Shown here piece after piece: positions 1,812 through 11,357 of a stretch of DNA of 11,357 nt (its first letter is position 1; each line of letters starts with the position of its first letter). The translations under genes and the position numbers were made by a program. This DNA is from Bradyrhizobium sp. (GTDB lineage: Bacteria > Pseudomonadota > Alphaproteobacteria > Rhizobiales > Xanthobacteraceae). Below the pieces are notes generated by a model, which saw nothing but the letters and a program-made list of their open reading frames with translations, searched no databases and was not told the DNA's origin. The DNA lies in assembly GCA_028290165.1 (NCBI GenBank), contig JAQGKJ010000741.1, forward strand, positions 1 through 11,357, read 5' to 3'.

Positions 1812-1979
1812 CCACCGGCTTTCCGCCGACAAATCTTCCGAATCCCCACGCAGCAGGTCCGGCAGATAGAACATATCGCCGCCCCGATCGACCTGGGCCA
1901 TGGTTTCCCCGATCAAGGCCGGCGCCCGGGCGAACTCCTTTTTGGTGGCCAGTGACTCGGCCAGCGCGGCCACCTCGCT
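1812..1979 (-). pseudogene. Fragment resembling a TPR tail of a regulator/ATPase
   Basis: Between the P460 and quinone reductase fragments the minus strand reads VAALAESLATKKEFARAPAL, then IGETMAQVDRGGDMFYLPDLLR. This has the helix-pair character of the C-terminal TPR region of large predicted-ATPase or winged-helix regulators, where a segment of the type YLPELLRIKG is common. After LLR the resemblance fades. There is no start, and both flanks belong to other genes in the opposite orientation, so this is a displaced scrap of about 55 codons. The assignment is from memory of the pattern and is uncertain; coding on this strand is inferred mainly because neither neighbouring fragment explains these 170 bases. 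Confidence 0.33.
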
Positions 1980-2316
1980 CGTGCCGGTGCCCGATGAAAT
2001 CAATGACCGAACGGCTGCGTCGGTGATGATGCAGGGGCTGACGGCCAGCCATTTCGCGACGGATTTCTATCCTGTGCAGCCCGGCGACATCGCGCTTGTC
2101 CATGCGGCCGCCGGCGGCCTCGGTCTGCTTCTCACCCAGATCATCAAGCTCAGGGGTGGCCATGTCATCGGTCGGGTCTCCTCGACCGATAAGATCGCGG
2201 TGACGAAGGAAGCCGGCGCCGATCATCTCATCGCCGAAGGCCGGTTTGCCGAGGAAGCGGTTCGTCTGTCAGGAGGTGAAGGCGTTCATGTCGTGTATGA
2301 CGGCTCCGGCCCCAAG
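1975..2316 (+). pseudogene. Quinone oxidoreductase (zeta-crystallin type MDR) fragment
   Basis: An internal piece of a zinc-free medium-chain NADPH:quinone oxidoreductase: LVPVPDEINDRTAASVMMQG, then FYPVQPGDIALVHAAAGGLG with the AAAGGLG dinucleotide-binding turn, then VIGRVSSTDKIAVTKEAGAD and GGEGVHVVYDGSGPK. The N-terminal catalytic domain (about 100 residues) is missing before 1975. Everything after DGSGPK (last codon 2314-2316) is also missing; the frame then gives RGQDLNLR and a stop at 2341-2343. That short tail is typical of reading across a tRNA 3' end or attachment site. The open frame upstream, back to GTG or ATG codons near 1900, is antisense to the TPR-like scrap. It is a dead fragment. 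Confidence 0.75.
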
Positions 2317-2352
2317 AGGGGACAAGATTTGAACCTTCGGTGACTTCGAAGG
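2317..2352 (-). other. tRNA 3'-end-like sequence, possible attachment-site remnant
   Basis: The minus strand contains GAAGGTTCAAATCTTGTCCCC, which matches a tRNA T-arm and start of the acceptor strand (TTCAAAT T-loop). The T-stem has a mismatch, no matching 5' acceptor or anticodon arm is visible within 90 bases upstream, and the CCA region is absent, so it is not a functional tRNA. A 6+6 bp inverted repeat (CCTTCG-N7-CGAAGG, 2334-2352) overlaps it. It sits exactly where the quinone reductase homology stops and about 80 bp from a recombinase remnant, as expected for an att site. Confidence 0.35.
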
Positions 2353-2430: not shown

Positions 2431-2910
2431 CTAAGCCGCCAGACCGCACTCCTCTTCGGCCTCCTCCTGGTCACCACCTGAAGCCCTCTTCAGGAAGCGG
2501 GCCAGGGCAGCTTTTCGTGAATCGCGGTCCAATGCGTAGGCGGTCTGCTTGAACTCAATGCCGTCAAGGAGCCCTTGGATGTAGCCGGAGATCGTGTCCG
2601 CAGCCATGATCAGCGCTGTGTCAAGCGTATGGATGTACTTGCTTGTCACCGAGCCCTTGGCTTGGCCGACCAGGGCCGCAATGGTCACCTCGGTAAAACC
2701 GAGATCGTTGGCGATGCTCGCGAAGCTATGACGTAGGACGTGCGGTGTCACATCGGATACCCCACTTGAACGTTTGGTCACGGCTGATCCCGCAATCGGC
2801 GTGATCGAGCGTGATATTCCACAAGGTGTGAACGGGCTTGTGGTCCGTTCCGAGTCTTGCAAATTAAGGCCAGCCAGCAGGGACTGATCAACCTCTGCCT
2901 TTGAGCGCAT
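2431..2910 (-). pseudogene. Tyrosine recombinase/integrase C-terminal remnant
   Basis: The C-terminal catalytic part of a phage/island-type tyrosine recombinase: VTPHVLRHSFAS holds the HxxR pair (residues 57 and 60 of this frame), and VTSKYIH holds the nucleophilic Tyr92. The intervening position, normally His (or Trp) in a segment like LVGH, is Gln83 (codon CAA at 2664-2662), one base away from a His codon. The N-terminal core-binding domain and the first catalytic Arg are missing, and residues 1-45 do not look like integrase. A complete family member is about 400 residues; this is 159. It ends with an acidic tail (DQEEAEEECGLAA). It cannot act alone as a recombinase. It marks an old integration event beside the att-like sequence. 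Confidence 0.8.
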
Positions 2911-2983: not shown

Positions 2984-3676
2984 TTAGGATTCTAACCCGG
3001 CAAGCCACGCTTCAAGCGCCTTGATGTGACGGTCGACAGCTCCGTCGATGCTTACCTGATCGCCAGTATTCGGATCTGAATCAATCGTCGCGTCGACATC
3101 GACCCACATCGAAGCGATTGTCCCCGCTGGAAGTTCATCCACTGCCGCGCGCCGCTCCGATCGCCGGTCAAGTTCGTCCGGATCTAGCTTCTCGAGGACA
3201 TCGACCATTCGCTGATACAATTTCCCGTAGCGCTCGCTCATGTCGAAAAATGGCGCGAGGCCTTGATTCTCGAGATACCCATGCACCGTCCCGGCCTTGC
3301 CATAAACGCCTGTGGTCTGCGGATGCGGTGTCATATGTCCGAACGACTCCTCGCCGCCCGGAGACACCCATCGCGCCAATGGATAGATGCGGCATGCCAG
3401 GGGCCGATCCGGGTGCACGCCGCATCCACTTTCGTTGAGAAATCCGCAGTCGCCATTCTCCTTGGACCGCAGGACGGTGCCGCCCGCCTCGGTGTGACCC
3501 GCGATGAATTCGGTGGTGGAGAGACCGAGATAGCGCGCCAACCGCAGGATTTCGTAAGGACTGACGCGAATCGCTTTGTTTCGGCAGCAGCGCTTGCAGG
3601 CGTGACAGGTGTAAGAGAATGCGCTTCCACGCTGCATGTCGAAATCGACGCGGGAGACCAGATCACCATAAGCCAT
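2984..3676 (-). CDS. YkgJ-type cysteine-cluster protein
   Basis: A 230-residue soluble protein of the YkgJ/UPF0153 cysteine-cluster family, members of which are annotated as putative Fe-S or zinc-binding proteins of unknown reaction. Cysteines lie at 24, 27, 30 and 31 (CHACKRCC) and at 77, 85 and 95 (CGFLNESGC, then RPLACRIYPL), the family pattern CxxCxxCC...C...C...C. Between the clusters, VSPYEILRLARYLGLSTTEF matches the conserved helix. The last 90 residues are acidic and helical without known motifs. No signal peptide or membrane segment is seen. ATG at 3676 has only a weak ribosome site. The gene follows the small repeat protein by 74 bp on the same strand and may be the last gene of the cassette or an independent neighbour. 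Some relatives sit with metal or methylation genes, but its job here cannot be inferred. Confidence 0.8.
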   Translation of the reverse strand: MAYGDLVSRVDFDMQRGSAFSYTCHACKRCCRNKAIRVSPYEILRLARYLGLSTTEFIAGHTEAGGTVLRSKENGDCGFLNESGCGVHPDRPLACRIYPLARWVSPGGEESFGHMTPHPQTTGVYGKAGTVHGYLENQGLAPFFDMSERYGKLYQRMVDVLEKLDPDELDRRSERRAAVDELPAGTIASMWVDVDATIDSDPNTGDQVSIDGAVDRHIKALEAWLAGLES

Positions 3677-3750: not shown

Positions 3751-4049
3751 TCATCGCGGCGGTGTTCCCTTCACTTTGTCGATGATTTCCTTGGCGAGAT
3801 CGGCGCAGGCCTTCATCGATTCGTCTTCGGCGCACTTCACGTCCACCGATGCAGTGCCGTCGGTGGCGATATCGACCTTGATGCGGCCGCCCTTGCCTTC
3901 GCGGCGGCCTTCCTTGCCCTCAAACTTCCCTTCGCCTTTTCCTTCACCTTTTCCTTCACCTTTGCCTTCTGCCTTGCCGCGGCGAGCGCCAACGTGGCGC
4001 GGCGCGACACACCAGTTCCGTTCGGGTTTGAATTGTCATCATGGGTCAT
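3751..4049 (-). pseudogene. Small Lys-Gly-Glu repeat protein, frameshifted
   Basis: A strong ribosome site (GAGGAG, 6 nt spacer) precedes ATG at 4049. That frame begins MTHDDNSNPNGTGVSRRATLALAA, with a twin-arginine-like SRRATLALA. From about 3983 the convincing coding frame is one base earlier: GKAEGKGEGKGEGKGEGKFEG, then GRIKVDIATDGTASVDVKCA, a predicted amphipathic helix (MKACADLAKEIIDKVKG) and a TGA at 3751-3753. Third-position GC preference supports the switch: the start frame is natural before about 3983, and the other after it. The downstream frame has no usable start codon of its own. Without a frame change the start frame gives a basic 70-residue product ending at 3837. Either a one-base deletion or sequencing error broke the gene, or a deletion also removed the rest of a Tat signal. 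It was probably a small exported or periplasmic protein with two cysteines; function unknown. Confidence 0.55.
3931..3978. repeat. Short tandem repeat encoding Gly-Glu-Gly-Lys units
   Basis: Imperfect tandem 12-bp units (TTCACCTTTTCC on the plus strand), each encoding Gly-Glu-Gly-Lys in the minus-strand downstream frame. Unit length is a multiple of three, so slippage here changes length without shifting the frame. It therefore does not by itself explain the frameshift nearby. Confidence 0.5.
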
Positions 4050-4168: not shown

Positions 4169-5428
4169 TCATAGCTGCGCCGCCGACAAGGCGAGCAGTG
4201 ACAGCAGAAGCGCGGGAGGCATAACGACGAGGCCAAGTCTGAGAAACTGAAGTGCGGCAACGCGCTCGCCCTCGCGACGCAGCGCGATTAGCCACAGGAT
4301 GGTGGCGAGTGAGCCTGTAACAGAGAGATTTGGCCCGAGATCGACGCCGATCAGGATCGAGCCGGTCACATGCACGGGCACCTGCGCGGCATGACTGGTG
4401 GTTGCCGCGATCAGACCCATCGGCAGATTGTTTACGAGATTAGATGCGATGGCGGCGGCGATGCCGACAATCCACGACGTTATGTCTGGAGATGTCGTTG
4501 CCATTTCATGTAAAATGCGGGCAAGCGCGGGCAGCACACCGGTTTGGTTCAACCCCTCGACGAGAACGAACAGACCCGCGACTAGCGGCAGCACGCTCCA
4601 CGACACGTCTTTAAGGATCGGCAGCGGCGATTGCCGCGCGGTGACCAGCACGGCGGCCGTCACCACTGCTCCGGCGACAAAGGTCGGCAACCCGAGTGGC
4701 CGGCCGGACGCAGATGCCGTGAGAAGCACGACCGCTGTCGTCGCGATTCCGAGCGCCGCAAGTTTGCCTCCGAACGTCAGCGAGGGCATTTCCTCCACGG
4801 CGGAGACGTTCGCATCAAGCGCCCGCCGTTGCGTCAGGCGCAGCGCGGCGTAGGTCGCCAGGATCGCGACGACCGAGGGGCCAGCAAAGTGGCGCAGCCA
4901 TTCCGACAACGGCGGCATTTGCGCGCCGAACACTACAAGGTTGGCCGGGTTGGAGATCGGCAGCACGAAACTCGCAGCATTGGCGATGAATGCACAAATG
5001 AAGAGGTAGGGCAGTGGCTCGACCCGCGCGGCACGGGTCGCGGCATAGACCGCCGGCGTCAGCACCACGGCGGTGGCGTCGTTCGACAGGAGCACCGTTA
5101 CCAGCGTGCCGACGAAGTAGACGATCAGGAACAGCCGTTTGGCCGAGCCGCGCGCGAGACGCACCGCCTGGGCGGCGAGCCAGCCGAACAGGCCCTCTTT
5201 TCGGGCGACCTCCGCAAGCAGCATCATGCCGATCAGGAAGAGATAGACATCCATGCCCTTGCCGGCCGCGACGAGCGCCTCCCGCCAAGGCAACAGGTTG
5301 AGCCCGACCAGAAGTGCGGCGCCCACGACCGCCCAGACATACTCCGGCAGATTCCATGGCCGCACGATCACGCCGAATGTGGCCAGCGCGGCAATTCCCC
5401 AAGTGGCCGTGCTGATCCCGGGCGTCAG
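4169..5428 (-). CDS. ArsB/SLC13-type inner-membrane carrier (arsenical pump-like)
   Basis: A hydrophobic 419-residue permease of the ArsB/ion transporter superfamily; the length matches ArsB-type carriers. From the chosen start, LSNDATAVVLTPAV lies at 114-127 and NAASFVLPISNPANLVVFG at 150-168, the paired hairpin motifs of this family. A second set, VNNLPMGLIAA, lies in the C-terminal half, as in the inverted-repeat fold. About 10-12 membrane segments are visible. ArsB proteins export arsenite or antimonite; other family members move different anions, so the substrate is open. Start: homologs begin close to TATWGIAALATFG, and no ATG, GTG or TTG fits. CTG at 5428, with GGGAG 4 nt upstream and a CTGA overlap with the MFS stop, is the best choice; the alternative GTG codons lie inside the first membrane segment. 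It is translationally coupled to the MFS gene. Confidence 0.82.
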   Translation of the reverse strand: MTPGISTATWGIAALATFGVIVRPWNLPEYVWAVVGAALLVGLNLLPWREALVAAGKGMDVYLFLIGMMLLAEVARKEGLFGWLAAQAVRLARGSAKRLFLIVYFVGTLVTVLLSNDATAVVLTPAVYAATRAARVEPLPYLFICAFIANAASFVLPISNPANLVVFGAQMPPLSEWLRHFAGPSVVAILATYAALRLTQRRALDANVSAVEEMPSLTFGGKLAALGIATTAVVLLTASASGRPLGLPTFVAGAVVTAAVLVTARQSPLPILKDVSWSVLPLVAGLFVLVEGLNQTGVLPALARILHEMATTSPDITSWIVGIAAAIASNLVNNLPMGLIAATTSHAAQVPVHVTGSILIGVDLGPNLSVTGSLATILWLIALRREGERVAALQFLRLGLVVMPPALLLSLLALSAAQL

Positions 5429-6717
5429 CGCGCTCCCACCGCCAGCGCGGCGATCGGCGCGGCGTGGGGTTCGGTTCGCCCGCGCGTCTCCGGCATGAAC
5501 AGCGCAAAGAAGCCGAAAGCAGCCAAAGCCACAGCGGTCAGCGACAGAAATCCCGCTCCGTATCCGTACCATTCTATGATGAAGCCGGAGACGAAGTTGC
5601 TGAGGGCGGCTCCTACGCCGACGCACAGCGCAACGAGGCCTTGCGCCAGATTGAAGCGTCCCGTGCCGCGCATGAGATCGGACGCGATGACGACGGCGAT
5701 CACGCCGAAGATGCCAGCCGCAATACCATCGAGAAGCTGAATCGCAACAACGCCGTAAGGATTCGCGGTGAATGAAAACAGAATGCCGCGTACCGGCAGC
5801 GTGGCCAGGGCAACCAGAAAGATAGGCTTCCGGCCAATGCCGGCCGCCATCGCCTTGCCCGCGGCCCACGCAACGCCGACCATGATCAATTGTGCCGCGA
5901 TAATGCAGGCAGACAGGGCAATCGTGTCCGAGCCGGGATGGGTTTGGGCCAGCACTTGTCCCGCCATCGGCAGCATCGCGGCATTTCCGAAATGAAACAG
6001 CACCACGGAGACCAGAAAAATTACGAGATCCTTGCGCGCAAACAGATCACGGACGCTGAGCGGCGCCATGAATTGACCGTTCGCATCGCGTTCTTCGCCG
6101 CCACGCGCCAGTTCATGATCGATTTCCGCGGGATTGATGAGATTGACGACCGCGGCGCTCGCGACCGCGAAGAAGCAGACCAGATAGAAGATCCAGTCAT
6201 AACCGAGGGTATAACCCAGCGATCCCGCCATTCCCGCGGCGACGAAGTTGCCGCCGTGGTTGAAGCTCTCATTGCGGCTGATCCGTGCATCAAGGCGCCT
6301 GTGGCCAACGAGGCCAAGACTGAGCGCCGCAAGCGCCGGCGGGATGACGGCAGAGGCTGCGCCGAGCGTCACCTGCGCGGCAACGACGGCCGCAAATTGC
6401 GGATGGAACGCGACCAACAGGCAACCGGCAGCCACCAGCAGACCGGACACGGCCACCAACAGCCGCTTGAACCGGAGACTGTCGACCAGAAGCCCCGCCG
6501 GAATCTGCCAGAATGCGGCAGCGATGCTCGACGCGGCCATTGCGATGCCGATCGCGCCTGGCGGCCAGTGCTGCTCGGCCTTGAGGAAGACCGCAAGGAA
6601 CGGGCCAAGACCGTCGCGAACGTCGGCGAGCAAAAAGTTGAGACCGTCAAGACCGCGCAGGCTGCGCTGCGACGGAGCCCGATTCCGTTCCTGCCCGTCG
6701 GTACGGCGAGGACTCAC
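5425..6717 (-). CDS. Major facilitator superfamily transporter
   Basis: A 430-residue inner-membrane carrier with about 12 hydrophobic segments. A polar N-terminus (1-25) leads into LNFLLADVRDGLGPFLAVFL. The loop between segments 2 and 3 carries GLLVDSLRFKR (75-85), the MFS loop motif (G...D...R/K). RNESFNHGGNFVAAG (148-162) is a distinctive polar stretch likely lining the path. The central loop is charged (EIDHELARGGEERDANGQF). Start: tandem GTG codons at 6720 and 6717. The second has GGAGG 5 nt upstream and overlaps the phosphoesterase stop as GTGA, so it is preferred. The stop overlaps the next carrier's start. Two unrelated carriers in one operon suggest transport of related substrates or import/export of a modified compound; the sequence does not show which. 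Confidence 0.85.
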   Translation of the reverse strand: MSPRRTDGQERNRAPSQRSLRGLDGLNFLLADVRDGLGPFLAVFLKAEQHWPPGAIGIAMAASSIAAAFWQIPAGLLVDSLRFKRLLVAVSGLLVAAGCLLVAFHPQFAAVVAAQVTLGAASAVIPPALAALSLGLVGHRRLDARISRNESFNHGGNFVAAGMAGSLGYTLGYDWIFYLVCFFAVASAAVVNLINPAEIDHELARGGEERDANGQFMAPLSVRDLFARKDLVIFLVSVVLFHFGNAAMLPMAGQVLAQTHPGSDTIALSACIIAAQLIMVGVAWAAGKAMAAGIGRKPIFLVALATLPVRGILFSFTANPYGVVAIQLLDGIAAGIFGVIAVVIASDLMRGTGRFNLAQGLVALCVGVGAALSNFVSGFIIEWYGYGAGFLSLTAVALAAFGFFALFMPETRGRTEPHAAPIAALAVGAR

Positions 6718-7838
6718 CACTTCCTCCCGTTTCTGTTGGGGCCGAGTTGCGTTCCGAACAGGTGGCGCTCAGGCCACGCGCCGATGCTGCCGGCGTCGCT
6801 GCCGGTCGGCTTGCGGATGAGGGGTGTGCGGGAGCGCGCAACCTCGATGGTGTCGGTATCCTGTCCGCCGCGATGATCGGTTACGCGAACGCTAAGCCTG
6901 AAGGATCGATCCGGAACCGTGGCCGACGCGGTAAATAATCCACCGTCTTCGCCTTGCATGAGGCGCCAGTCGTCGTCGTCAACCTTGAACAATGCTTTTG
7001 CGATCGGGACTGCGCCCCAGGCGGAAGCTCTCACTTCGCAGGAAGCGCCCAAGATTTGATCAGGCGAGTCCGGTTGCGTAACAAGCCTGCGGTCGGCAGG
7101 AGCCGTGATCATCACGAACGGCCATGGCGATTTGAGCGTCTTGAAACGCCAGCTCACCATCCCCCGATCGATGGCAGCGAAGGAAAAACCAGCATCCCCC
7201 TCTTCGATCTGGCCGGTCGAGCGCGTCGCCGCGTAAATCGTCCGGCCATCGTTGGCGAGCTCGTTGTAATGAGTATGACCCATATCGACCAACGCGACCG
7301 TGCTGTCGTCAAATAGAGTGGTCAGCTCCTCGGCTTCGCCGCGAAGATCAGCAGGATAGGTGTGCATAAACACGGCAGCGACCTTCCTGTCCCGCCGTGC
7401 GGCGTCAAGCTGTTCGCGCAGCCAGATAAGGCGCGATGCTCCGAGCCGGAAATCGGGACCACCCGAACCGCACGACACCACATCGAGAAAGATGCAGCGG
7501 CAGCCGGAGATTTCGGTCACATAGGGCAGCCGGCGAGCCTTGAGACCGGCATAGAAATTGTCGAGCGACTTCGGCTTGAAGTCGTGATCGCCGGGAATTG
7601 CGTGCCATGGTGCGGTCAATCGCGACATCTCGTCGTGGACGATGCGGAATTGTTCAGGCGTGCCGTCGTCCGCGTTGTCGCCGGGCAAAATTACAAAATC
7701 AATTCCACCGCTGACATTCGCGTTCACCTCATCCACGATGCGGCGCAGATCGAGATGGTTCTGCAGGTCAGCCTCGGTGATATGCAAATCACCGATGTGC
7801 AGGAACCTGAGTGGTCTTTGATTTGTGTCATTGGACAT
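6714..7838 (-). CDS. Calcineurin-like metallophosphoesterase with C-terminal beta-sandwich
   Basis: A 374-residue enzyme of the two-metal metallophosphoesterase superfamily, which hydrolyses phosphomono- or diesters. Motifs in order: GDLH (16-19; Asp17, His19), GDNADD (53-58), GDHD (83-86), MHTYP (His159) and GHTHYN (187-192). In the third motif the usual GNH[DE] Asn is Asp84. Residues about 255-335 look like an Ig/fibronectin-like beta-sandwich (ending SVRVTDHRGGQDTDTIEV), unusual for a protein with no signal peptide; it is predicted cytoplasmic. The C-terminus is polar and basic (LGPNRNGRKW). ATG at 7838 is 84 bp after the His-tail gene; its stop overlaps the MFS start. Substrate is unknown; co-transcription with two carriers suggests it processes a transported compound, or reverses a phosphate or arsenate ester. 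Confidence 0.85.
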   Translation of the reverse strand: MSNDTNQRPLRFLHIGDLHITEADLQNHLDLRRIVDEVNANVSGGIDFVILPGDNADDGTPEQFRIVHDEMSRLTAPWHAIPGDHDFKPKSLDNFYAGLKARRLPYVTEISGCRCIFLDVVSCGSGGPDFRLGASRLIWLREQLDAARRDRKVAAVFMHTYPADLRGEAEELTTLFDDSTVALVDMGHTHYNELANDGRTIYAATRSTGQIEEGDAGFSFAAIDRGMVSWRFKTLKSPWPFVMITAPADRRLVTQPDSPDQILGASCEVRASAWGAVPIAKALFKVDDDDWRLMQGEDGGLFTASATVPDRSFRLSVRVTDHRGGQDTDTIEVARSRTPLIRKPTGSDAGSIGAWPERHLFGTQLGPNRNGRKW

Positions 7839-7876
7839 TGTAACTCTCGCAGTAAACGTTTGTCCCGTTCAATACG

Positions 7877-7913
7877 GCCGCACGGCGAAACGGATATCGC
7901 CTCGGCGTGCGGC
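7877..7913 (-). other. Intercistronic hairpin
   Basis: An 8+8 bp inverted repeat (GCCGCACG at 7877-7884, CGTGCGGC at 7906-7913) with an inner 4+4 bp stem (7885-7888 with 7897-7900) lies between the His-tail gene and the phosphoesterase. No U-run follows, so it is unlikely to be a strong intrinsic terminator. It may stabilise the upstream message or attenuate read-through. Confidence 0.4.
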
Positions 7914-7922
7914 ACGTGGCGA

Positions 7923-8582
7923 CTAAGCGGCATGCTCCTCGTTGCGATGCTCCGGATCATGCTTGGGTCCGTGTTTTTTCCCGCGATGCTTGGGGCCTTT
8001 GTGACCCGGTTCATGCTTGGGCTTCTTCGGCTCGAGCGGCTGCAGCGTTTCGATGGATGCGCCGATTTCGCGCGCCTCGACCACCGTCCCGAAAGTCGTC
8101 GTGGCTCCGTCGCCGTTGACTGAGATTTCTGCGCCCTTCTTGAGCAAATCGGCAAAACACTCGGCCTCATGAGGCGGCAGGCGGATGATGCGCCCGTCCT
8201 CAAGCACGGCACCGCGCGTTTCACCCTTCGGCCCATGGATCGACTGCTTGACGGTACCCTCCGCGGTCATCGGACCGTGCTTCGCCTTCTCAAATTCGCT
8301 ATCGTCCTCGCGAATGTGCGGACCCTCGTCGAGGATGCGACCCTTTGGCGTATCGATCGCGACGGCGGCAACCATCTGAATACCGCGCGGGCGAACCCCA
8401 CGGACCTTGACCTGACTGCCGAGGTGCACATCGCGCAGAAGTCGGGAAGATAAATGCGGCGGCACGTGCACCTCGCTTCCATCGGTCAGCAGAAAGCCAT
8501 CGGCTTCGCCGTGCTTGTTGACGAGAAACTGGTCCACGGTCCCGCTAATTTCCGGGAGGTGATCGGGATCGATCCAATGCAT
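7923..8582 (-). CDS. Duplicated beta-domain protein with His/Lys-rich tail
   Basis: A 219-residue soluble protein that I do not recognise by name. It holds two similar modules: residues 12-62 (GTVDQFLVNKHGEADGFLL, then TDGSEVHVPPH, ending VKVRG) and 108-158 (GTVKQSIHGPKGETRGAVLE, then DGRIIRLPPH, ending ISVNG). Each looks like a small OB-fold or SH3-like barrel with a shared DG...LPPH/VPPH signature. The C-terminus (185-219) is Pro/Lys/His-rich, with PKH three times and seven His between 190 and 217, a plausible Zn/Ni/Cu/Co-binding tail. No signal peptide or membrane segment is present, so it is predicted cytoplasmic. AAGGAG lies 7 nt before ATG at 8582. It is the first gene after the sigma54 promoter, which makes it the likely primary response protein of the cassette, perhaps metal sensing or storage. 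That role is inference. Confidence 0.8.
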   Translation of the reverse strand: MHWIDPDHLPEISGTVDQFLVNKHGEADGFLLTDGSEVHVPPHLSSRLLRDVHLGSQVKVRGVRPRGIQMVAAVAIDTPKGRILDEGPHIREDDSEFEKAKHGPMTAEGTVKQSIHGPKGETRGAVLEDGRIIRLPPHEAECFADLLKKGAEISVNGDGATTTFGTVVEAREIGASIETLQPLEPKKPKHEPGHKGPKHRGKKHGPKHDPEHRNEEHAA

Positions 8583-8630
8583 GTTGAAGCTCCTTGCGTT
8601 CGACTGTCGGGCAGTCCTGCCGACGTCTTC

Positions 8631-8645
8631 GCAAGGCGCGTGCCA
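8631..8645 (-). promoter_or_regulatory. Sigma54 (-24/-12) promoter
   Basis: The minus strand reads TGGCACG-CGCC-TTGC, matching the RpoN consensus TGGCACG-N4-TTGC at every defined base, with GG and GC exactly 10 bp apart. The predicted start point is near 8619, giving a leader of about 37 nt before the ATG at 8582. An NtrC-type activator gene ends 234 bp upstream, and an inverted repeat lies at about -99, so activator, enhancer and promoter are all present. Confidence 0.85.
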
Positions 8646-8656
8646 ACAGGCATGCC

Positions 8657-8677
8657 ATTGTTTTTATTGTGTTTTGA
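8657..8677. promoter_or_regulatory. AT-rich patch between enhancer and sigma54 promoter
   Basis: A 21-bp stretch with A/T runs spaced about one helical turn apart, standing out in high-GC surroundings. Its position between the putative activator site and the -24 box is where IHF or intrinsic bending usually acts at sigma54 promoters. No clean IHF consensus is seen. Confidence 0.35.
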
Positions 8678-8706
8678 AGAGAGCCGCGACGAGCGGAGCG
8701 TCGTAT

Positions 8707-8729
8707 TTCACGACACTCGCCGTCGTGAA
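8707..8729. promoter_or_regulatory. Putative enhancer (activator) site
   Basis: A perfect inverted repeat TTCACGAC-N7-GTCGTGAA centred near 8718, about 99 bp upstream of the predicted start point, within the usual range for NtrC-type activators. A weaker CGACG-N7-CGTCG (8687-8703) lies 23 bp closer to the promoter, about two helical turns away, which would fit two dimers on one face. It is probably bound by the Fis-type HTH of the adjacent response regulator. Confidence 0.55.
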
Positions 8730-8878
8730 TGCGGACGCATGGGGAATGCGGGACTCACAAGCACGCGAAGGGCGAACGCGGCGCTGTGGCTTGGAAATGA
8801 CGCGGTGAGGTACGGCGCGGATGAAGAACGCGGGATCAGTTGAGGCCGATCAGATTGCGTGCCGCGCCTACGGACGGC

Positions 8879-10237
8879 TCAATCCGAACTCTTTCGTTTG
8901 CCCAACCCGTATTTTTCAGCCTTGGTGTGCAGGAGCTGACGGTTGATTCCAAGTCGGCGCGCGGCTTCCGCGCGATTGCCCTTTGACTCGGCGAGTGCTT
9001 CGGAAATCAACCGGCGCTCAAGCCGTTCCACCGCGGACGAGAGATCCTCATCCGCGCCGCCACCGTCTGAACCCGGAAGGCCGCCGTGAGACCCAGTGAG
9101 AAAATTCAGATCGGCAGCCGTAACGATATCACTGCGGCACATCACGGCGACGCGTTCCATGGCATTTCTGAGCTCGCGTACATTGCCGGGCCAGGGATGT
9201 TCGGTGAGACGCTGCGCGGCGTCGCTCGACAATTGCTTCTTTAGCGACGACGCAAGCATCAGAAAATGTTCAGCCAGCGGAACGATGTCGGCGACGCGCT
9301 CTCGCAGCGGCTGCAATTCGACAGGAACGACAGTCAGACGATAGAACAGATCCTCGCGAAAACGTCCGGCCTTCACCCATTGGTCGAGATCGCGATGCGT
9401 AGCGGCGATGATCCGCACGTCTATCTTTTGCGACCGGCCGCCGACGGGCGTTACGACGCGCTCCTGAATTGCCCTCAGGATCTTGGCCTGCATGGCGAGG
9501 TCCATGTCGCCGATTTCATCGAGGAACAGCGTACCACCGTCGGCGTCGCGAAACGCCCCCTTGCGCTCCACCACGGCGCCCGTGAATGCGCCCTTCGTGT
9601 GGCCGAACAGTTCGCTCTCAAGCAGTTCCGCCGGAATGGCCGCGCAGTTGAGCGCGACAAACGGGGCCGCGCTGCGAATACCAACCCGATGGATGATGCG
9701 CGCGACAACCTCTTTCCCCGTGCCCGTCTCGCCGGTGATCAGGACAGTGGCGTCGCCATCTGCGACGAGGCCGATCGTTTTCTGCACGTCACGCATACTG
9801 CTGCTTGAGCCGATAATTTCATCTTGGCCACTTTCAGCCGCGCGTGGGCTGCGCTTGAGAGATTTCGATGCCCTTGACCGGATCATGCGCTTAAGAAGCG
9901 ATGCCAGATCCTCGCGCCCGATGGGCTTGGTCAGATGATCGAACGCGCCGAGCCGCATGGCCTCGATCGTGTTGGCCGCGGTCGCATAGGCGGTGATGAT
10001 GGCAACGGGTGGCTTCGAACCTTCTGCATCATCGCGCAGCCGTGTCAGAACCTGAAGCCCGTCCATATCCTGCATCCGCAGATCGAGCAGCACAGCGTCC
10101 GGTTTCGCCTTCGCCGCGAGGGCAAGCGCTTCGCGCCCCGATGCCGCGGCGACCGCCTCATAACCGAGATCCCGAACGGCCTCCGCGAGACCATCCCGCA
10201 AGGCCTTCTCGTCGTCGACGATCAGCACGACCGTCAC
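8879..10237 (-). CDS. NtrC-family sigma54-dependent response regulator
   Basis: A 452-residue enhancer-binding activator. The receiver domain (1-120) has the acidic pair near Asp8-Asp9, phospho-acceptor Asp52 (LLDLRMQDMDG), Thr82 and Lys104. The AAA+ domain (about 140-370) has Walker A GETGTGKE (169-176), the sigma54-contact loop GAFTGA (216-221), Walker B GGTLFLDEIG (234-243) and arginine-finger segment GRFREDLFYR (291-300). A Fis-type HTH (NRAEAARRLGINRQLLHTKA, 421-440) ends the protein. All elements needed for RpoN activation are intact. GTG start at 10237 overlaps the kinase stop as GTGA, so the pair is co-translated. Its likely target is the sigma54 promoter just downstream. The overall layout resembles ZraR/HydG-type regulators, but the signal is not known. 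Confidence 0.95.
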   Translation of the reverse strand: MTVVLIVDDEKALRDGLAEAVRDLGYEAVAAASGREALALAAKAKPDAVLLDLRMQDMDGLQVLTRLRDDAEGSKPPVAIITAYATAANTIEAMRLGAFDHLTKPIGREDLASLLKRMIRSRASKSLKRSPRAAESGQDEIIGSSSSMRDVQKTIGLVADGDATVLITGETGTGKEVVARIIHRVGIRSAAPFVALNCAAIPAELLESELFGHTKGAFTGAVVERKGAFRDADGGTLFLDEIGDMDLAMQAKILRAIQERVVTPVGGRSQKIDVRIIAATHRDLDQWVKAGRFREDLFYRLTVVPVELQPLRERVADIVPLAEHFLMLASSLKKQLSSDAAQRLTEHPWPGNVRELRNAMERVAVMCRSDIVTAADLNFLTGSHGGLPGSDGGGADEDLSSAVERLERRLISEALAESKGNRAEAARRLGINRQLLHTKAEKYGLGKRKSSD

Positions 10238-11357
10238 GAGCGGCCCCCGATCGGAAAGTCCAGGGTAAATGTCGTGCCATCCGTGCGATGCGCGACAACA
10301 ACGCGACCGCCATGCGCTTCCGCAACCTCGCGCACAATCGCGAGGCCAAGTCCCGTTCCGTCCGGCCGGCCAGTCGCGAAGGGTTCGAACAGATGCTCTC
10401 GAATGTTCAATGGCACTCCTCTCCCTGAGTCGGCGACAGAAAGACGCAACCGGTTGTCGACTATATCTCCGCGCAAGGTGATCGGGGTACCATCCTCAGA
10501 ATTTTGAATGGCGTTCAGGATCAAATTGTCGAGCGCGCCACCTATCTGCGCCGTGTCGAACGATACCTGCTGTTCAACCAACTGCGGTACCTCGACTGAT
10601 ATCGCGCGGCGACCGGCCTGTTCGCGAAACAGCGCGGCGTGATCCGCAAGAAATTTGCGGATATCTGCGACAGGCTGTCGCTTGATGTCTGACCGCTGAA
10701 CCGAACGCAGCAGAGTTTGCAAAAGCCGGTCCATTCGTCCCACCTGCTCGACCACGACCTGCAGCGCATCCGTCGTCCTGCCTGGGTCGGCCTCATTGGC
10801 GAGAGCATTCTCGGCCTTTAACCGCATGGCGGCGATCGGGTTCCGTATTTCGTGAGCGACGCCGGCAGCGACCCGGCCCAGCGTGGCAAGGCGCTCGCCG
10901 TCTGCAACACGCTGGAGCAGGCTTTCGGTGCGGCGACGCGCTTCCGACGCCTTGGCGCCCGCCCCGTTGATTGCCCCCACGATGCGGTCGAGATCACGCT
11001 GACCTGTCAGCGGCAGAACCGGCAAGTCCTCAGCGCCTGTCGATAGCGCCGCTTCCACCGTTCGCAACCGCTGCGACCAACGCCAGAGCACCCGTCCGAG
11101 CAACGCCGCCGATCCCAGAAGCACGACGAGCAGGAATGCCAATCCCGTGACCGCCAGAAGGAATGGCCGCCCGCCGACGGTCACGACCCGCGTCATGGTC
11201 CATGCGGCGATGCCCTCCGCTGCGTTGGAAATCGGACAAGCGTGAATCAAGAGGACCTGCGAACCCGCATCCCGCTTCCACTCGACCGGCCGGTGCGCGG
11301 TCGCGGCCGTCTCGACCACCTGCCTTATCGTTGGTTCTTCGGCTTGCGGAAGATCTG
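10234..11357 (-). CDS. Sensor histidine kinase, 5' end beyond the window
   Basis: The open frame reaches the window edge without a convincing start, so the N-terminus (an earlier membrane segment and most of the sensor domain) is missing. Counting from the GTG at 11319: the end of a presumed periplasmic domain (1-50), a membrane segment (about 52-78, FLLAVTGLAFLLVVLLGSAALL), a HAMP-like linker, a HisKA helix with VAHEIRNP (phospho-His156), N box DNLILNAIQN (264-273), G1 DSGRGVP (297-303), FEPF (311-314) and G2 GTGLGLAI (321-328). A complete kinase core is thus present. It should phosphorylate the receiver Asp52 of the overlapping NtrC-type regulator. The sensed signal is presumably extracytoplasmic; a single Cys (HACPI) is seen in the visible sensor part, with no metal-binding motif. 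Confidence 0.93.
   Translation of the reverse strand, partial: DLPQAEEPTIRQVVETAATAHRPVEWKRDAGSQVLLIHACPISNAAEGIAAWTMTRVVTVGGRPFLLAVTGLAFLLVVLLGSAALLGRVLWRWSQRLRTVEAALSTGAEDLPVLPLTGQRDLDRIVGAINGAGAKASEARRRTESLLQRVADGERLATLGRVAAGVAHEIRNPIAAMRLKAENALANEADPGRTTDALQVVVEQVGRMDRLLQTLLRSVQRSDIKRQPVADIRKFLADHAALFREQAGRRAISVEVPQLVEQQVSFDTAQIGGALDNLILNAIQNSEDGTPITLRGDIVDNRLRLSVADSGRGVPLNIREHLFEPFATGRPDGTGLGLAIVREVAEAHGGRVVVAHRTDGTTFTLDFPIGGRS

What the first reader, a model, noticed from the sequence alone, without database searches (positions are those of the whole stretch)
4169..11357. Two-component/sigma54-controlled cassette: His-tail protein, phosphoesterase, MFS and ArsB-like carrier
Seen: kinase and NtrC-type activator with GTGA overlap, a consensus sigma54 promoter, then a same-strand run of a His/Lys-tailed duplicated-domain protein, a metallophosphoesterase, an MFS carrier and an ArsB/SLC13-type carrier, the last three coupled by 4-bp overlaps. 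Known: ars operons are usually ArsR-repressed and sigma70-driven, and ZraSR-type systems usually control small periplasmic zinc proteins. The combination of phosphoesterase plus two unrelated carriers under RpoN does not match a pathway I can name. Inference: response to, or export of, a metal or oxyanion, possibly after dephosphorylation of an intermediate.
Basis: partly seen in the sequence, partly recalled or inferred. Interest (0 to 1): 0.8.

Follow-up and report, generated by a model that had tools for sequence, protein, structure and literature searches.

The report
Sigma-54-switched exporter and phosphoesterase cassette
A bacterial sensor pair appears to switch on, through a precisely spaced control site, a block of genes for unstudied OB-fold proteins, membrane carriers and a phosphoester-cutting enzyme; related blocks recur in distant, often plant-associated bacteria, and what they respond to is unknown.

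Summary
Of 40 loci with a close NtrC-type regulator upstream of module genes, 33 carry a strict sigma-54 site in the gap. The seven without are all Methylobacterium: four have a TTGA variant, one shows none, two have lost the regulator's GAFTGA loop. A combined pattern hit 21 places in 150 Burkholderiaceae genomes; 18 are promoters of this system; the reversed control gave 0. The His-tail protein is a two-OB-fold protein without a Pfam family; its tail is not conserved. The kinase sensor has two invariant cysteines. The phosphoesterase is GpdQ-like, with Asp in motif III and a conserved disordered tail. Bacteroidota pair the OB proteins with an OmpR-type system. Arsenic/oxyanion export is weakly supported: the carrier misses NCBIfam ArsB cut-offs and no ars gene was found in 121 module or OB loci. 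Best reading: an inducible export/detoxification response to an unknown, possibly thiol-reactive, compound.

The parts
10234..11357 (-). Sensor histidine kinase, 5' end beyond the window edge; end of the periplasmic sensor with the second conserved Cys (codon 11236-11238), TM2, HisKA, HATPase_c
8879..10237 (-). NtrC-family response regulator (receiver, AAA+ with GAFTGA, Fis-type HTH); GTGA overlap with the kinase
8699..8715 (-). Palindrome TGTCGTGAAATACGACG (predicted regulator site), starting 70 nt upstream of the -24 box
8630..8645 (-). Sigma-54 promoter TGGCACGCGCCTTGCG, 48 bp before the OB protein's ATG
7923..8582 (-). Duplicated OB-fold protein, 219 aa, with a lineage-limited His/Lys-rich tail; no Pfam family
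6714..7838 (-). GpdQ-like metallophosphoesterase, 374 aa, motif III GDHD, GHTHYN, C-terminal beta (Ig-like) domain
6717..6803 (-). Codons of the conserved C-terminal tail GSDAGSIGAWPERHLFGTQLGPNRNGRKW
5425..6720 (-). MFS carrier, not assigned to a named NCBIfam family; GTG start at 6720 or 6717
4169..5431 (-). ArsB/CitMHS (SLC13-type) carrier; start codon uncertain, CTG at 5428 would give a CTGA overlap

Best explanation
An inducible export/detoxification regulon. A membrane kinase with an unnamed periplasmic sensor domain holding an invariant cysteine pair detects a compound in the envelope. It phosphorylates the NtrC-type regulator, which binds the TGTCG-N7-CGACA palindrome about 70 nt upstream of the -24 box and, through its GAFTGA loop, opens a sigma-54 promoter. 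That promoter drives OB-fold accessory proteins, an MFS exporter and, as exchangeable extras, an ArsB/SLC13-type carrier, a YdcZ carrier (absent from the window) and a cytosolic GpdQ-like phosphodiesterase. The phosphodiesterase would cleave a phosphoester form of the compound, or of something it damages, while the carriers remove the product. Shown by sequence comparison: gene order, promoter and palindrome with fixed spacing, cysteine pair, folds of two proteins (predicted models), copies of the promoter at separate genes. Inferred: that the regulator binds the palindrome, transport direction, hydrolase substrate, role of the OB proteins, and that the signal is thiol-reactive.
Against: No signal, substrate or transport direction was measured, and my paper searches surfaced nothing on the gene set. 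In 54 of 70 phosphoesterase loci no such regulator lies within 5 kb. Four sigma-54-like sites before phosphoesterase genes (L002, L021, L027, L034) lack the palindrome, as do the gaps of L063 and L136. Six of 32 fetched OB loci hold a single OB gene without kinase, regulator or carrier. Two cysteines may form only a structural disulfide. MFS and ArsB-type families include importers.
Confidence: 0.6

Rival explanations
1. Metalloid or oxyanion resistance: the cysteine pair senses As(III), Sb(III) or another soft metal(loid), the ArsB-like carrier exports it, and the MFS exports an ester opened by the phosphoesterase.
For: Carrier passes the Pfam ArsB cut-off and matches a solved ArsB; invariant Cys pair; one 70%-identical relative lies beside acr3 and arsH (NCBIfam) and what read like arsR and two arsC genes.
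Against: NCBIfam ArsB models far below cut-off (164.4 against 457 bits); no homologue of that ars cluster in the window, L001-L088 or L109-L140 at E 1e-8; of 19 Bradyrhizobium-family genomes with the carrier, 18 show no phosphoesterase, and of the 20 stretches fetched around such carriers and one OB gene only L092 has ars genes.
Confidence: 0.2
2. Scavenging: the carriers import glycerophosphodiesters or other plant-surface phosphodiesters, which the GpdQ-like enzyme hydrolyses for carbon or phosphate.
For: Catalytic fold closest to glycerophosphodiesterase GpdQ; several host names point to leaves or lichens.
Against: Three unrelated carrier families, one of them (YdcZ) described by Pfam as a putative exporter; in the fetched OB loci the phosphoesterase is mostly absent while regulators and carriers remain.
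Confidence: 0.12
3. Signal turnover: the phosphoesterase hydrolyses a cyclic nucleotide and the carriers are incidental co-regulated genes.
For: Weak similarity to the SpdA and CpdA phosphodiesterase models and to Rv0805.
Against: Scores far below those cut-offs (35.9 against 400 and 34.4 against 225 bits); motif III is GDHD in 85 of 87 loci; the usual neighbours are carriers.
Confidence: 0.08

Closest known systems
ZraSR/AtoSC-type two-component systems (sigma-54)
   Same: Kinase and NtrC-family regulator as a pair; sigma-54 promoter directly upstream of a small-protein target
   Different: Below NCBIfam cut-offs for ZraS, ZraR, AtoS and AtoC; sensor with two conserved Cys and no Pfam family above cut-off; targets are OB proteins, carriers and a phosphoesterase
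GpdQ / Rv0805 metallophosphodiesterases
   Same: Same catalytic fold and overall metal motifs
   Different: Motif III GDHD in 85 of 87 loci where GpdQ has GNHD (alignment); an added C-terminal beta domain; a conserved, poorly modelled tail
ArsB / SLC13 (DASS) carriers
   Same: Pfam ArsB and CitMHS; similarity to a solved ArsB
   Different: Far below the NCBIfam ArsB cut-offs; no ars genes nearby
OB-fold proteins (SSB, PriB; Pfam tRNA_anti-codon, DUF5666)

Membership tests
Sigma-54 enhancer-binding response regulators | Receiver, AAA+ domain with Walker A and GAFTGA, Fis-type HTH | tested here: met
   Pfam domains and GAFTGA in the window translation; GAFTGA in 19 of the 22 regulator hits, missing in L045, L047 and one distant L021 hit
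Sigma-54 promoter | TGGCAYR-N4-TTGCW with GG and GC kept, before the target gene, conserved in relatives | tested here: met
   11 of 12 positions in the window; 33 of 40 regulator loci
ZraSR system | NCBIfam ZraS and ZraR equivalog cut-offs | tested here: not met
   146.9 against 479 and 356.8 against 760 bits; the window kinase is 5'-truncated
ArsB arsenite exporter | NCBIfam ArsB subfamily cut-offs | tested here: not met
   164.4 against 457 and 134.4 against 415 bits; the looser Pfam ArsB cut-off is met
ars operon | ArsR, ArsC, Acr3 or ArsH nearby | tested here: not met
   tblastn with the five L092 ars proteins finds none in the window, L001-L088 or L109-L140; distant homologues could be missed, and flanks are at most about 10 kb
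ArsB arsenite exporter | Transports As(III)/Sb(III) | not testable with these tools
   no assay possible
GpdQ / CpdA phosphodiesterase | Same fold, motif III GNH(D/E), CpdA cut-off | tested here: not met
SSB/PriB single-stranded DNA-binding proteins | OB fold that binds nucleic acid | tested here: inconclusive
   OB fold predicted; binding not testable

The most novel reading that the evidence does not exclude
An undescribed sensing-and-export system shared by Proteobacteria and Bacteroidota, in which OB-fold protein pairs in different compartments act as accessory sensors of two unrelated two-component families, and the phosphoesterase's conserved disordered tail, kept alone as a 59-aa peptide in Caballeronia SBC1, docks on the carriers or the OB protein to couple hydrolysis to export.
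Probability: 0.15. Interest if true: 0.85.

Novelty: new variant of a known kind. Interest (0 to 1): 0.62.

Why it matters
It lays out a whole uncharacterised regulon with a defined promoter grammar (palindrome, fixed spacing, sigma-54 box), a cysteine-pair sensor domain and a tandem OB-fold family that Pfam does not name, and a GpdQ-like enzyme with an unexplained conserved tail. The signature is specific enough to predict members in genomes and to make the inducing compound findable by a reporter screen. Its recurrence in strains named after leaves, lichens and soil suggests a shared chemical challenge. The paired loss of GAFTGA and of the sigma-54 site in two Methylobacterium loci looks like a natural case of sigma-factor rewiring.

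Tried and rejected
Arsenic operon: five ars proteins of L092 searched in 109 sequences and in 32 more loci; only L092, which is not a module locus, has them. His tail as a core metal-binding feature: rejected, since 7 or more His-rich-tail copies are limited to Bradyrhizobium-like and a few other proteins, and the Caballeronia-type copies end without it. Stand-alone tail peptide as a widespread gene: only 3 proteins found, the query among them, so probably an internally deleted phosphoesterase. Further widely shared neighbours: ORF clustering in 88 loci plus the window showed none beyond the parts named; several of the larger clusters are opposite-strand spurious ORFs and the caller was crude, so small genes may be missed. 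tRNA and Rfam scans of the window: nothing. Literature: nine searches of an open-licence library listed nothing that seemed to describe this gene set; I saw listings and abstract starts, and passages of one paper, PMC3101248, which decided nothing. General roles of these protein families are recalled. Whole-chain Foldseek TM-scores for the OB model were low. In a first tail count seven loci seemed to lack it; on reading, six have small variants and L085 is cut or frame-broken.

Limits of the counts. One search kept the best 80 of 215 loci and picked them by the GDHD and GHTHYN words, so counts of those two motifs are biased; the tail was not used for picking. One search used 70 of 88 loci (18 dropped for short flank or no full-length enzyme), kept kinase and regulator hits at 200 bits or more, and undercounts divergent Bacteroidota OB proteins. 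One search left out regulator hits under 400 bits. Taxon samples come from larger groups, hold some tiny genomes, and only a limited number of candidates per genome were scored. L024 and L138 appear to be the same contig; neither is among the 40 regulator loci. Identities are to the better of two queries; the window-only values are. The combined pattern gave 3 hits in 149 Bradyrhizobium-family genomes, none in the one genome with the module, whose palindrome begins with C. A palindrome of 8 of 10 occurs 1.24 times per kb by background, so its mere presence in a gap is weak evidence; the fixed spacing is the argument.
Full report
What is in the window. On the minus strand lie a histidine kinase cut by the window edge (10234-11357), an NtrC-type regulator (8879-10237), a sigma-54 site (8645-8630), a 219-aa protein with two repeats and a His/Lys tail (8582-7923), a metallophosphoesterase (7838-6714), an MFS carrier (to 5425) and an ArsB/CitMHS carrier (to 4169). 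tblastn with two YdcZ proteins finds none in the window, although many relatives have one. Kinase, regulator, OB protein and ArsB-like carrier are 78-79% identical to those of Bradyrhizobium L009, the phosphoesterase 74%.

Neighbourhood from the phosphoesterase. An alignment found 215 relatives in a collection of one genome per species, of which the best 80 were kept; eight plasmid loci were added. Hosts named there include Bradyrhizobium, Methylobacterium, Sphingomonas, Aureimonas, Burkholderiales, Rhodanobacter and Bacteroidota. Of 70 loci with more than 4.5 kb on both sides of the gene, 61 have the ArsB-like carrier within 5 kb, 49 an MFS, 43 a YdcZ (DMT) carrier, 18 an OB protein, 16 a regulator (15 at 57% identity or more, one at 40%) and 12 a kinase. 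So phosphoesterase plus carriers is the commoner unit, and the NtrC-type pair is attached in part of the tree.

Neighbourhood from the OB protein. In 150 Burkholderiaceae genomes 31 have the OB family and 10 the phosphoesterase, all 10 among the 31. In 151 genomes around Pedobacter 4 have the OB family and 3 the phosphoesterase, all 3 among the 4. Of 32 OB loci fetched from these samples, 21 have kinase and regulator; of those 21, 17 have an MFS (one of them broken) and 11 the ArsB-like carrier; six others hold a single OB gene with none of the rest. In 149 genomes of the Bradyrhizobium-family sample the phosphoesterase was found in 1, the OB family in 2 and the ArsB-like carrier in 19, so the carrier also lives apart.

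Promoter. In 33 of 40 loci with a close regulator (400 bits or more) and a module gene downstream, a strict sigma-54 site lies in the gap, 12.3 kb in all. At the overall rate of 39 sites in 1.62 Mb about 0.15 would be expected by my arithmetic. The seven exceptions are Methylobacterium: L036, L038, L042 and L044 have TGGCAYG-N4-TTGA, L055 has none found, and L045 and L047 have none and also lack GAFTGA in the regulator. A palindrome TGTCG-N7-CGACA (8 or more of 10 positions) occurs in 38 of 40 gaps. Background is 1.24 per kb, so presence alone is weak, but position is not: around all strict sigma-54 sites, 32 palindromes begin 68-70 nt upstream and others fall mainly at 90-93 and 100-102. By my count, 25 of the 33 strict gaps and the 4 TTGA gaps have one at 68-70 nt; the window has it at 70. 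L045 and L047 keep good palindromes. The loci share ancestry and are not independent trials.

Genome-wide test. The pattern TGTC-N9-GAC-N51..53-TGGCAY-N5-TTGC has 21 matches in 150 Burkholderiaceae genomes: 18 lie directly upstream of an OB gene or phosphoesterase of this system, 3 elsewhere (context not examined), and the reversed control has 0 (placed). Phosphoesterase genes apart from the regulator's operon in L006, L053, L062, L063 and L066, and an ArsB-like gene in L118, have a sigma-54-like site with a palindrome; sites before the phosphoesterase in L002, L021, L027 and L034 have none. In the Bradyrhizobium-family sample the pattern gave 3 hits, none in the module genome.

A second regulatory solution. 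In Pedobacter and Mucilaginibacter loci the OB proteins sit beside an OmpR-type regulator (Response_reg + Trans_reg_C in 4 of 4 scanned) and a HAMP kinase, with MFS, phosphoesterase and ArsB-like genes in L049, L058 and L061; L128 and L137 show OB, regulator and kinase without the enzyme nearby. An unrelated two-component family joined to the same OB proteins argues that the OB proteins belong with sensing; this is inference.

What it does. The parts fit an inducible export response; which compound is not shown. Arsenic is suggested by the carrier's name: NCBIfam cut-offs are missed widely, and no ars homologue was found in the window, L001-L088 or L109-L140. One 70%-identical relative in another genome lies next to acr3, arsH and what read like arsR and arsC, and the cysteine pair would suit a thiophilic agent, so I leave it at 0.2.

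Probabilities by step: one sigma-54 regulon in lineages with the regulator 0.93; palindrome is the regulator's site 0.9; export/detoxification role 0.6; thiol-reactive or soft-metal signal 0.3.

Noticed in passing
L045:8383-10001 and L047:8360-10001 (Methylobacterium): Regulator has GALGGA instead of GAFTGA and no sigma-54 site was found before the target gene, while the palindromes remain: apparent switch away from sigma-54.
   Followed up: partly
L008:5972-6151 (Caballeronia SBC1 plasmid): A 59-aa ORF made of the phosphoesterase's conserved C-terminal tail stands in the enzyme's slot, behind a ribosome-binding-site-like stretch.
   Followed up: partly
window 5425-6720: The MFS is of a different subfamily from that of the nearest Bradyrhizobium loci (35-38% identity against 78-79% for kinase, regulator, OB protein and ArsB-like carrier of L009): the exporter gene looks swapped.
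   Followed up: partly
window 3765-4049 (-): Small Lys/Glu-rich ORF with a twin-arginine-like start appears split over two frames at a simple repeat; sequencing slip or real frameshift not known.
   Followed up: no
window 2431-2910 (-) and 1900-2343 (+): A phage-integrase-like fragment (below the Pfam cut-off) and what reads like a cut-off quinone-oxidoreductase gene (by eye, no search) lie near each other, hinting at an island boundary.
   Followed up: no
window 2984-3676 (-): CxxCxxCC (putative zinc- or iron-chelating) protein near the cassette.
   Followed up: no
L004:3606, L005:3528, L083:5534, L110:3806, L109:11292: A near-consensus sigma-54 site also precedes the kinase gene in one Burkholderiaceae group, suggesting self-activation.
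   Followed up: no
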